Positions 9,321 through 23,949 are shown, counted from the stretch's first letter. The stretch: DNA of 64,000 bases from Deltaproteobacteria bacterium (GCA_028713995.1 JAQTNF010000010.1:1-64000); one strand, 5' to 3'. Translations and numbers: made by a program. The notes: generated by a model not told the origin, from the sequence alone.

Positions 9321-12300
9321 CTATGCCCCTATCGAGATTCCGAGAGTTTCCCGCAACTTGAAGTACTCCTCGGAAATGCTGAACAGAACGAGCTCCTTGA
9401 TCTTCTCCTTGGGCGGAATCTCATCCACGGTACCTGTCTCGGCCTGGATCATGCGAGCCGCGACCTCGAGGTCGTTTGCCAGTAGGAAGCCCGCCCTGCA
9501 CCCAGTCAGCTCGACCGCGTTCACCCATTTCTTGATATCCACGATCTCGCCCGACTTGATGAAACGGGCCACGACCTTGCTCAGGTTCTCCACCTCCATC
9601 GGAGTCAGGTTCGACCTGAGGACGTCCACATATCCCGCCAGGACTCCAGACTTGTCCTCTGGAAGTCTGAAGTCAGTTGCGCCGATCTTGAGCGCGGCGA
9701 GCAGGAGCATCTTGAGCTCGGCGTGGGTCGGCAGGACCCAGCGGATGTAATGCTCTGGCCGGCAGTACGACAAGTGCTTCGTGACGATGAACAGAAGATC
9801 CTGCGGTGAGTAACCGGACAAGAGGCTCGCCCCGCATGCGGACGCCATGGGATCGGTCACCGCGAAGTTGAGCCCGCCCGGCTTGTCCTCCTGGATATAA
9901 AGGTCGGGCACGACCGGGAGGTTGATGACCTGTGCGGCATAGAAGAATGTTTTCGAGAAGGTCATCGTGTCGTTGACCGGCCGCTTCTGGTTCTTCTTGA
10001 GACCGAAGGCCTTGATCGGCTGAACCTTTACGGCCCTCACAGCACGCGTCACGAGCTCGAAAATCTTGCCCAGATAGACCGACTCGTCGGGGTGGAACAG
10101 GTCCTTGATCCAGCGCTCGTTGTCGAGGCGCGCCTGCGCCCGCACCATTCCGCGCGTCCTGTACTGCTCGAAGAATTGCTGCTCCTCGGCGTCGGCTTTC
10201 TTGAGGAACGCCAGCGTCGCGCACAGGCACCACGCCTTGTCGTACTGCCGATTGTCAAAATAGAGCTTGCGCAACGCCTTGTAGGAATCGACACGGTAGG
10301 GGTTCTTCTTGATGAGGAACTGGTGCTCCGCGACCGCGTCCTTCAGCTTGTCGGGCAGATTCATGAACAGCTCGGCCAGGATCTCGTGCCTAAGCACGTT
10401 GTCGGGCTCGAGGCTGGCGGCCATCTTGAACGCTTCTGCCGCGGGTTCGAACTGCTGCATGCGCGTCCTGTAAATCTCACCGAGGAAGTGCCACAGGTTA
10501 GTCTCGATATCCTTGCGCCCTTTGCCCGCAATGCGGTGCAGCATCTTGCGGTAGTTGCGCTCCAGGTTTTTCCAATCCTTGCGCTGCGTGAGGATCCGGT
10601 CGATCGCCTCGAACGACTTCAAGTTCTCGGTGCTCGCATCCAGCGACTTGTTGAAACACTCGACGGCGTCTTCGGCGCTTTTGATCTCGTCGCGATAGAT
10701 GACACCCATGGAGTAGTACAGCCTGCCGAGCTTGTCGTTCTCTTCTTCAAGATCCGCGACCTTCTGAATGACTTCAACCACCTTCTGCCACTGCTTCGTA
10801 GTCTGGTACAGGGGGAGCAGCTTGTGCAGAGCCGTCCGGTCGTCCGGCTTCTGGTCGAGGGCCTCGTTGTAAGCCGAGATGGCTTTCTGCGGATTCTTGA
10901 GCTTCTCCTGCCAGATGTCGCCGATCTCGATGATGTGGTGGAAGCGCTCATCCGGATCCTCGAGAGCGCCGATGAGGATCTTTTTGAAGTGGATGACCTG
11001 CTCGTAGTTTTTCTGCTCTTCGTGGAGGACGATGACCTCCCCGAGCGTCGGCTTGTGGTTGGGGTCGAGCTCCAAGGCCTTGTCGAACATGTTGAGCGCC
11101 TTGCGCCGCTCGTTGACCTTGGCCTTGATGTACCCGAGGCGGAAGAAGATCTCGACCGTCTCCTCCGGTCCCTGCTTGTCGCGGTGGTGAACCAGGACCA
11201 TCTGGTAGAACTTGAAGGCCTTGTCCCAATCCTCCTTGCGGTAGAAGACGTCCGCCAGCGCCAACAGTGTCGGCAGGTGCGCGGTGTCGGTGTCGTAGGC
11301 CGTCTGGTAGGCCTTGAGCGCCTTGTCGAGGTTCCCGAGCTTGTCCGCGACAAGACCGAGTTGCCTGTGGAACGGCGCCAGCTCCACCGGCGGCCGCTTG
11401 GCGCCCAGACGGATGAGCGTGTCGAGGAGCATCTCGGCCTCGGGCCAACGCTTGGCTTCGACATAGACGCTCACAAGCGGCTCTGCGGCCTCCTGATTGT
11501 CCGGATCCGAACGCAACGCCTCCTCGTACCACTTGATGGCGGTCGGCTTGTCGTCGAGCCTCGTTTCGAGGACGTTGGCGAGCTCGTACTGGAGCTTGGA
11601 TTTCTGTCGTGCGTTCTCCGTGTGCTCCTGTTCGGCCTCCATCACCCGTGCCGCGGCGACCCACTCGGCTTCGTCGATATGGATTTTGCGCAGCAGCTCG
11701 AGCGAGGGCAGATGCCCGCTGTCGATGTCGAGCGCGGAGCGCAGGTGCTCGACCGCAGCCGTACGGTCTTCAAGGTTCTCCTCGTTGAGCTGTCCGAGCC
11801 TGAAATAGAGATCGACCTTGCGCTCCGAATCGGACACGGTCTCGGCCAAGCGACGCAGGGTGTCGTGAGCGGCAGCCCAGTCCTTGCTCCTGACCTGCAG
11901 CTTGGCCATCTCGTCGAGAGCCGTCTCGTGGCTGGGGTCGATATCGAGCACGCGCCGGTAGGCCTCGATCGCACGCTCGGCGTCGTTCAGATCGGCGGCA
12001 TAAACCTTGCCGACATCCTGGCACAAGTTGATCTTGACGTCGCGGTCGCGCGTGACATCGACGTGCCGCTCGAACGCGCTGATGAGATCGCGCCACCTGG
12101 CCGACTGCCGATAGATGCGCTCGAGTGCCTGCAGCGAGCTCTCGTGCCCGGGATCGATTTCGAGGACCTGCTCGTACCTCTCGGCGGCCTTTTCGGGCTT
12201 GACGAACTCCTCCTCCAGCATGTTCGCAATCCGCGTGAGCAGGGAGATGCGCTCACGCTCGGAGGTGGCGTGCTCGAGTTCTATTTCGAGAACGTCCATG

Positions 12301-22728: not shown

Positions 22729-23949
22729 CTACTTGCCCACTTCCTCCTGCTCCTCCTCCTCCCCGGTCAGCACCCCGATGAGCTGGTTGATGCGGTAGGA
22801 GAGCCCGCCCACTTCCGACGACTTCACGTCGAAACGATAACTGTATTCACCATTGATGATCTTGAGCAAGCCTTCCTCGATGGCCATCACCGGCTTCTGG
22901 AAGTGGTTGCCGAGCAGGAACCCCGCCACGATGACGATGATGCCAGCGAGCGCCATGAGCACGAGGATGGACACGAGCGCGCCCAGGTCCTCGGTGGCCT
23001 TGTCCACCGACGCCATGACGACGTTTGCCACCTGATCCTTTGCCTCCGCGGAGCGCACCGCGGTGAGGATGGCCAAGTAGGGATCGCCTTCGATGTTTAT
23101 CTCGAACACGTCGGAAGGCTGCCCGGTGGAAAGAGTCTTACCCAGCCTGACCGCCCCGTCCGGCTGGCTCATCTGTTGCTCAAGGCTCTGGCGCGCCAGA
23201 TCGCCCGTGAGCGACGTGGAGTAAACCTTGCCGCCCTTGATGACCGCCACATCGTGGCCCAGCATTTCGGACTTCTTCTTCGCGGTGCCGTTCGAGAGCT
23301 CGAACCCGATCACGAGCACCCCGGCGACCTTGTCCGAGACCCAGATCGGCGCCGCGGCCAGCTCGAGGAGCCCCGAGTTCATGAACTCGCACGAGCCCTT
23401 CACCTTGTTGGTCGGGCTGAACGGGGAATCGTTCACCGACCAGATCGCGTACACCGCCTCGCCGGCCAGCGCCTGACCGACGACCGGCATGCTCTTGTCG
23501 AGGTTGAACCCCGCCGGGCAAGCGTTGGGCGTCATATTGCGGGCAAGAGCGTACCCCTTGCTGTCCGTGATGATGACCAACTCGGGCCGCTTGCCGGTCT
23601 TCTCGGACCATAGCTCGCTCATCATCTCGACGACCTTCACGCTGCGCTTGAACCAGATGTCCCGGATCTTCTTGTCAACCGCGTCCTCGGTCTCTCCCTC
23701 GGCCGGCTGCAAATCCACCGGCGCAAACGCCTCGAGGACATCCTTGGACGAGGCCTGGGCGCGCGTGCTGAACAGGAGCTCGAAGCCCCGGAGATCCTCG
23801 GACCTGTCGAACAGACTTTGGGATGTCTTCAAGTTCTCCCGAAGGTGCACGATGGTATTTCCGGTGAGGCTGCTTTTCAGGTAGGCGAATCCGCCCAGAC
23901 CGAGAATCAGCACGGCGACCAGATTGGGGAGAATGATTTTCCCTCTCAT
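22729..23949 (-). CDS. Membrane sensor: periplasmic Cache-like domain plus HAMP, no output domain
   Basis: A 406-residue protein. TM1 is at about 5-24 (IILPNLVAVLILGLGGFAYL), a periplasmic domain of about 295 residues follows with Cache-like features (VIITDSKGYALARN, AVYAIWSVNDSPFSP, AAAPIWVSDKVAGVLVIGFE), then TM2 near 325-350 (LVSILVLMALAGIIVIVAGF) and a HAMP domain. The protein ends right after HAMP with an acidic tail (GEEEEQEEVGK). There is no kinase, cyclase or methyl-accepting domain, so the signal must be passed to a partner, perhaps the HEAT protein encoded next. The start has AGGA near the ATG and GGAGGGG further upstream. The transcript diverges from the HDAC-like gene across 133 bp. 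Confidence 0.82.
   Translation of the reverse strand: MRGKIILPNLVAVLILGLGGFAYLKSSLTGNTIVHLRENLKTSQSLFDRSEDLRGFELLFSTRAQASSKDVLEAFAPVDLQPAEGETEDAVDKKIRDIWFKRSVKVVEMMSELWSEKTGKRPELVIITDSKGYALARNMTPNACPAGFNLDKSMPVVGQALAGEAVYAIWSVNDSPFSPTNKVKGSCEFMNSGLLELAAAPIWVSDKVAGVLVIGFELSNGTAKKKSEMLGHDVAVIKGGKVYSTSLTGDLARQSLEQQMSQPDGAVRLGKTLSTGQPSDVFEINIEGDPYLAILTAVRSAEAKDQVANVVMASVDKATEDLGALVSILVLMALAGIIVIVAGFLLGNHFQKPVMAIEEGLLKIINGEYSYRFDVKSSEVGGLSYRINQLIGVLTGEEEEQEEVGK

What the first reader, a model, noticed from the sequence alone, without database searches (positions are those of the whole stretch)
9321..23949. Candidate undescribed envelope-to-cytoplasm system: sensor, HEAT, TPR lipoprotein and giant TPR protein
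Four genes run in the same direction: a Cache-like/HAMP sensor ending after HAMP, a HEAT protein 26 bases on, a TPR lipoprotein with its own upstream gap, and a 3851-residue TPR protein. Sensor and lipoprotein reach the periplasm, while the HEAT and giant TPR proteins look soluble. Together they could form a scaffold that carries a signal from the envelope to the cytoplasm. The TPR lipoprotein plus giant TPR pair recalls AglT and AgmK/GltI of Myxococcus gliding, but the other gliding genes (AgmX, AglRQS and others) are absent here.
Basis: partly seen in the sequence, partly recalled or inferred. Interest (0 to 1): 0.85.

Follow-up and report, generated by a model that had tools for sequence, protein, structure and literature searches.

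The report
Relocated half of a gliding-motor locus
The four genes are not a free-standing new system: the giant TPR protein and the TPR lipoprotein belong to the known Agl-Glt gliding machine of myxobacteria, and the sensor and HEAT protein are old, so far undescribed neighbours of that gliding locus, which suggests an environmental input to the machine.

Summary
The genes are as described: sensor, HEAT, TPR lipoprotein and 3851-aa TPR protein, all on the minus strand. They are conserved together in at least nine genomes of the family. They are not a separate undescribed system. The giant is collinear over its whole length (35-44% identity) with the giant TPR protein that ends the gltC-D-E-F-G-LIPO-[giant] cluster in many other Myxococcota. 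That is the position, size and make-up of GltI/AgmK. The lipoprotein is not AglT/GltE or Tgl. It is a separate TPR lipoprotein found between gltG and gltI across the phylum. The "missing" gliding genes are elsewhere in the same genome: gltC-D-E-F on contig C1, gltG beside an AglRQS-like motor on C20. In three related families sensor-HEAT lie about 8 kb upstream of the glt cluster, on one contig. The window therefore holds the two ends of that super-locus, the middle having moved away. What is new: a dCache-HAMP sensor without output domain plus a HEAT protein as old neighbours of the glt locus, and the overlooked lipoprotein gene (possibly M. xanthus agmV, untested). That sensor and HEAT feed a signal into the motor is inference only.

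The parts
9321..20876 (-). gltI/agmK homologue: 3851-aa soluble TPR scaffold; residues about 3568-3851 form a conserved non-TPR C-terminal domain
   Evidence: collinear 35-44% identity with giants that follow gltG-LIPO in other families; tree places it with glt-linked giants and apart from the short paralogue
20931..21812 (-). LIPO: TPR protein with signal sequence (lipoprotein in relatives, lipobox poor here); the gene between gltG and gltI in other Myxococcota; not GltE, not Tgl
21813..21961 (-). 149-base gap with a sigma-70-like promoter match (21879-21851); in this family the point where the two ends of the ancestral glt super-locus meet
   Evidence: junction inferred
21962..22702 (-). HEAT-repeat protein, about 246 aa, soluble; syntenic neighbour of the glt locus in families f5, f11 and f16
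22729..23949 (-). dCache-HAMP transmembrane sensor, 406 aa, no output domain
24020..25129 (+). histone-deacetylase-family protein, divergent; syntenic marker that flanks sensor-HEAT in f11 and f16 too; not claimed as a part of the system
5349..9119 (-). rho (7839-9119), DUF1385 (6436-7479) and prfA (5349-6422): downstream neighbours shared by most of the family only; not part of the system

Best explanation
The window holds one half of a split Agl-Glt (gliding transducer) locus. The giant TPR protein is the cytosolic scaffold GltI/AgmK, which in M. xanthus couples the AglRQS proton motor and GltG to the MreB track. The TPR lipoprotein is a periplasmic or outer-membrane TPR component of the same machine, encoded between gltG and gltI across the phylum. 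Sensor (dCache-HAMP) and HEAT are an accessory pair that joined the glt locus in the ancestor of families f1, f5, f11 and f16. In the window's family the block gltC-D-E-F-G moved elsewhere, which left HDAC / sensor-HEAT fused to LIPO-gltI. Likely working: a small ligand binds the periplasmic dCache domain, the HAMP changes state, the HEAT protein (having no enzymatic domain) relays this by binding, and the target is the Glt machine, with GltI the obvious cytosolic candidate. Shown here: homology, synteny, architecture, and the presence of the other glt genes and a motor-like operon. Taken from the literature: what GltI does in M. xanthus. Inferred: the sensor-HEAT-GltI relay, and that these bacteria glide.
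For: Whole-length collinearity of the giant with cluster giants: G126 41%, G015 42%, G196 44%, G065 35%; 2200-3070 bits against 568 for the own short paralogue. Those giants follow gltC-D-E-F-G-LIPO directly. Cluster genes are named by curated NCBIfam models in the window's genome and its relative G006: GltG NF033760 424 bits, GltC NF033756 270 bits, CglF NF033764 69 bits, GltE NF033758 96 bits, all below the strict equivalog cut-offs. Published GltI: 4132 aa, soluble, TPR, in the same place after gltG/H (PMC3169522). Tree: family giants group with glt-linked giants of f11 and f16 (94/80; with f5 95/93), the own paralogue falls outside in a 99/99 clade. Own genome has gltC-D-E-F on C1, and gltG on C20 with MotA/ExbB plus two ExbD genes beside it. 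In G196, G126 and G025 HDAC/sensor-HEAT lie about 8 kb upstream of gltC, same strand as the cluster, which runs on to gltI; G173 likewise but no HDAC detected; in G017 sensor-HEAT precede gltC-D-E. GltI role: links AglQ/GltG to MreB (PMC13104615).
Against: No M. xanthus genome was held, so the giant was not compared directly with MXAN_4863. GltJ, which follows gltI in M. xanthus, was not found in the own genome at E 1e-15, and MglA was not convincingly found, so the machine may not be a complete gliding motor; Nfs-like or other surface transport is possible. Sensor and HEAT are not linked to glt within about 20 kb upstream in families f3, f4, f6, f7, f10, f23 and f33; G006 lacks the sensor and G007 has sensor-HEAT apart from LIPO-gltI. 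Nothing tests a physical contact of HEAT with GltI.
Confidence: 0.75

Rival explanations
1. The locus belongs to an Agl-Glt-type machine that serves surface transport other than gliding, such as an Nfs-like coat or polysaccharide transporter, rather than motility.
For: Nfs and Glt are paralogous and share the Agl motor (PMC3858216). GltJ and a clear MglA were not found in the own genome.
Against: gltI is listed among the glt genes restricted to Myxococcales and Bdellovibrionales (PMC3169522). CglF, a gliding-named family, is matched in G006.
Confidence: 0.25
2. Sensor and HEAT have no functional tie to GltI; they are passenger neighbours of the glt locus, as HDAC and YraN seem to be. The giant and lipoprotein are Glt components all the same.
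For: HDAC and YraN-family genes are carried along in the same blocks. Sensor-HEAT is not linked to glt in most other families, and G007 has it apart from LIPO-gltI.
Against: Sensor and HEAT stay next to each other in four families and stayed with LIPO-gltI when the middle block left; the sensor has no kinase or MCP output of its own and needs a partner.
Confidence: 0.4
3. One reading: sensor, HEAT, TPR lipoprotein and giant form an independent, undescribed envelope-to-cytoplasm signalling scaffold unrelated to gliding.
For: Four genes conserved together in at least nine family genomes; sensor without output domain.
Against: In f11 and f16 the same genes lie in one super-locus with gltC-D-E-F-G (in f5 the contig ends after gltE); giants are collinear with glt-cluster giants.
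Confidence: 0.05
4. The TPR lipoprotein is the pilotin Tgl and the locus is about type IV pili.
For: NCBIfam Tgl model matches it at E 9e-19.
Against: 67.8 bits against a cut-off of 225; another locus of the same genome scores better (C50, 85.9 against 57.8 bits); LIPO lies in glt clusters across the phylum.
Confidence: 0.02

Closest known systems
GltI/AgmK (MXAN_4863) of the M. xanthus Agl-Glt gliding machine
   Same: Giant soluble TPR protein of about 4000 aa; homologous by whole-length similarity to giants encoded right after gltG-LIPO in other Myxococcota, the place gltI has in the M. xanthus G1 cluster
M. xanthus agmV (MXAN_4864/4865), called likely pseudogenes by Luciano et al. 2011
   Same: Position between gltG/H and gltI, as LIPO; hit in gliding screens (PMC3169522); MXAN_4865 detected in outer-membrane vesicles by mass spectrometry (PMC4158809)
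   Different: Sequence identity to LIPO not tested; a lead only
GltE/AglT (MXAN_4869)
   Same: TPR lipoprotein of the glt cluster
   Different: A separate GltE exists in the clusters and in the own genome (C1); window LIPO is only 25% identical to it and is a different gene of the same clusters
dCache chemoreceptors and sensor kinases (Tlp3, PctA, DctB)
   Same: Periplasmic double Cache fold, two TM segments, HAMP
   Different: Ends after HAMP: no MCP signalling domain, kinase or cyclase
Nfs spore-coat machine
   Same: Paralogous trans-envelope machine on the Agl motor
   Different: The window's genome was not tested for an Nfs set; the function of its Glt set is unknown

Membership tests
GltI/AgmK | Giant (about 4000 aa) soluble TPR protein without signal peptide or TM segment | tested here: met
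   published GltI 4132 aa (PMC3169522)
GltI/AgmK | Groups with the giants encoded in glt clusters, not with other paralogues | tested here: met
GltI/AgmK | Encoded directly in the glt cluster with gltG upstream and gltJ downstream | tested here: not met
   In this family gltC-G is elsewhere; gltJ not found. gltG-LIPO-giant is met in f3, f4, f11, f16, f23 and f33 relatives. This lowers a claim of conserved operon, not of homology
GltI/AgmK | Direct sequence orthology with MXAN_4863 | not testable with these tools
   No Myxococcus genome found in the held set; no NCBIfam model for GltI matched
GltI/AgmK | Couples AglRQS/GltG to MreB | not testable with these tools
   Literature only (PMC13104615)
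Agl-Glt machinery (genome level) | gltC, D, E, F and G present | tested here: met
   C1 and C20; GltF by position and length in the own genome, by model in G006
Agl-Glt machinery (genome level) | AglRQS motor | tested here: inconclusive
   MotA/ExbB plus two ExbD genes beside gltG fit, but Tol/Exb paralogues were not excluded by phylogeny
Agl-Glt machinery (genome level) | GltJ and MglA | tested here: inconclusive
   GltJ none at 1e-15; Arf-family hit in a 398-aa frame only
GltE/AglT (for LIPO) | Best GltE-model match and GltE position in the cluster | tested here: not met
   Own GltE is at C1; LIPO is a separate gene in the same clusters
Tgl (for LIPO) | Best Tgl-model match in the genome | tested here: not met
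Chemoreceptor or histidine kinase (for sensor) | Cytoplasmic output domain | tested here: not met
   protein ends shortly after the HAMP-like helices

The most novel reading that the evidence does not exclude
A dCache-HAMP receptor without output domain and a HEAT adaptor form a dedicated input module for the Agl-Glt gliding machine in one branch of Myxococcota, acting on the GltI scaffold; and the TPR lipoprotein between gltG and gltI is a real structural Glt subunit that was dismissed in M. xanthus (agmV).
Probability: 0.3. Interest if true: 0.75.

Novelty: new variant of a known kind. Interest (0 to 1): 0.55.

Why it matters
It moves a seemingly orphan four-gene locus into the best-studied bacterial gliding machine. 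It shows that gltI and its lipoprotein stay together when the rest of the cluster leaves, and it names two candidate accessory proteins. How environmental cues reach the Agl-Glt motor outside the Frz/MglA route is open; a ligand-binding receptor without output beside the motor scaffold is directly testable in a culturable relative. It also asks for a new look at agmV, hit in gliding screens but set aside as a pseudogene.

Tried and rejected
Tgl/type IV pilus reading of the lipoprotein: rejected. LIPO as AglT/GltE: rejected. Finding a Myxococcus genome through the GltE model in the family and class of Myxococcia-type genomes: none over the cut-off. Profile A1 was too diverse for a scan of named genomes; the narrower A2 worked. 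Fold search of the GltI C-terminal domain: model pLDDT 90, best PDB hits are Ste24/ZMPSTE24, BepA and BlaR1 (M48-clan metalloproteases), but E about 0.1 and TM 0.36, and no HExxH motif; kept as a weak lead to a degenerate M48-like domain. One PDB sequence hit (6oz1, E 0.014) was disregarded as chance. The longest ORF of G196 was first taken on the wrong strand (3429 aa, 23%); corrected to 3372 aa, 44%. Rfam and tRNA scans of the window: nothing. The search for small GTPases of the MglA kind with Pfam Arf was not informative.

Full report
Observation. The four minus-strand genes are present as described: sensor 22729-23949, HEAT 21962-22702, TPR lipoprotein (LIPO) 20931-21812 and giant TPR protein 9321-20876 (3851 aa). 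The HEAT start lies 26 bases after the sensor stop. A 149-base gap with one sigma-70-like match precedes LIPO (1 found, 0.5 expected, so weak). Giant and HEAT lack TM segments. The sensor models as a double Cache plus HAMP and matches dCache chemoreceptor domains at E 1e-8 to 1e-10. It ends after HAMP.

Conservation in the family. All four genes lie together in G000, G001, G002, G003, G004, G005, G008, G010 and G011 (in G002 and G003 the contig or fetched stretch ends inside the giant). G006 has HEAT-LIPO-giant and no sensor found in its genome. G007 has sensor-HEAT on a contig without LIPO or giant in the next 6 kb. Most members also share HDAC upstream and rho-DUF1385-prfA downstream. Named relatives are MAGs labelled Myxococcota, Deltaproteobacteria or Myxococcales bacterium.

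What the giant is. Outside the family, in the same class, the genes upstream of the giant are a GltC-like protein of about 590 aa, a GltD-like protein of about 1200 aa, a GltE-like TPR protein, a short GltF/CglF-like protein, an FHA protein with GltG architecture, and then LIPO and the giant. The same order holds in other classes (G065, G131, G174). Curated models name these genes in the window's genome or its relative G006: GltG 424 bits, GltC 270, CglF 69, GltE 96, all below the strict equivalog cut-offs. The published M. xanthus G1 cluster is gltD-E-F-G-H-I-J, with GltI/AgmK a soluble 4132-aa TPR protein (PMC3169522). The window giant aligns over its whole length with the cluster giants at 35-44% identity. 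In a tree of the C-terminal domain it sits with glt-linked giants of families f11 and f16, while the own 1790-aa paralogue (contig C65) falls in a separate 99/99 clade. The giant is therefore a GltI homologue; the direct test against MXAN_4863 could not be run.

Where the other gliding genes are. They are elsewhere in the genome: gltC-D-E-F on contig C1 (about 97.4-105.1 kb) and gltG on C20 (19510-21453), next to a MotA/ExbB gene and two ExbD genes that fit AglR, AglQ and AglS. In G001, G004, G005 and G006 gltC, D, E and G stay in one cluster, away from LIPO-gltI; the short gltF gene between E and G was checked in G006.

Origin of the four-gene order. In f16 (G196, one contig of 10.3 Mb; G173) and f11 (G126, G025) sensor-HEAT lie about 8 kb upstream of gltC on the strand of the cluster, which in G196, G126 and G025 was followed on to gltI. 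HDAC is divergent beside the sensor in G196, G126 and G025. In f5 (G017) sensor-HEAT precede gltC-D-E on one contig, which then ends. Families f1, f5, f11 and f16 form one supported group in the giant tree (95/93). No such linkage was found within about 20 kb upstream of gltC in f3, f4, f6, f7, f10, f23 and f33, as far as contigs reach. The simplest history is that sensor-HEAT joined the glt locus once in this branch, and that in the window's family the middle block moved out together with its YraN-side neighbours (G006; own genome), leaving both ends fused. The history is inferred from present orders.

LIPO. It is not the pilotin Tgl and not GltE (own GltE at C1; 25% identity). It is a separate TPR lipoprotein in glt clusters across the phylum, 28-38% identical to the window's copy. 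Its lipobox is canonical in f3, f23 and f33 and poor in f1 and f16. In M. xanthus the same place is held by agmV (MXAN_4864/65), hit in transposon screens, then set aside as likely pseudogenes (PMC3169522); MXAN_4865 was detected in vesicle preparations (PMC4158809). That agmV is LIPO is a lead only.

Mechanism. In M. xanthus GltI with GltG couples the AglRQS motor to MreB (PMC13104615). By homology the giant is such a scaffold. Sensor and HEAT have no output or enzymatic domain, so a relay by binding (dCache ligand, HAMP, HEAT, Glt machine) is the most economical reading, but neither the contact nor gliding in these bacteria is shown. GltJ and MglA were not clearly found, so an Nfs-like or other surface-transport role is not excluded (PMC3858216). 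Sensor-HEAT as mere neighbours is also a serious rival, since HDAC and YraN travel in the same blocks.

Verdict.

Noticed in passing
9324-10175 (-): The C-terminal 284 residues of the giant are a conserved non-TPR domain without Pfam match; its model (pLDDT 90) is nearest to M48-clan metalloproteases (Ste24, BepA, BlaR1) without HExxH, E about 0.1: possibly a dead protease domain in GltI.
   Followed up: partly
L046 5767-11136 (G000:C65): A second, shorter TPR protein (1790 aa) with the same C-terminal domain; nearly all of the 29 related genomes searched have at least one such paralogue.
   Followed up: partly
L142 9510-14388 (G000:C20:19510-24388): In the own genome gltG has left gltC-D-E-F and sits beside an AglRQS-like motor operon, with an unknown 337-aa ORF with an N-terminal hydrophobic stretch between them.
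   Followed up: partly
L148 2685-3698, L150 2304-3269, L051 1442-2338: A TPR lipoprotein gene between gltG and gltI across Myxococcota, the position of M. xanthus agmV (MXAN_4864/65), which was dismissed as a likely pseudogene.
   Followed up: partly
25899-29738 (+): Response regulator with HD domain, HAMP histidine kinase and an RNase PH-family gene; conserved next to HDAC in most family genomes.
   Followed up: no
L143 5135-6670 (G006:C90): A second HEAT-repeat protein with a signal-like start and a 209-aa membrane protein travel with gltC in f1 (G006), f5, f11 and f16; further candidate neighbours of the gliding locus.
   Followed up: no
L066 957-1712 (G022:C627): A homologue of the HEAT protein (37% identity) lies about 5 kb from a GltI paralogue in family f10.
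   Followed up: no
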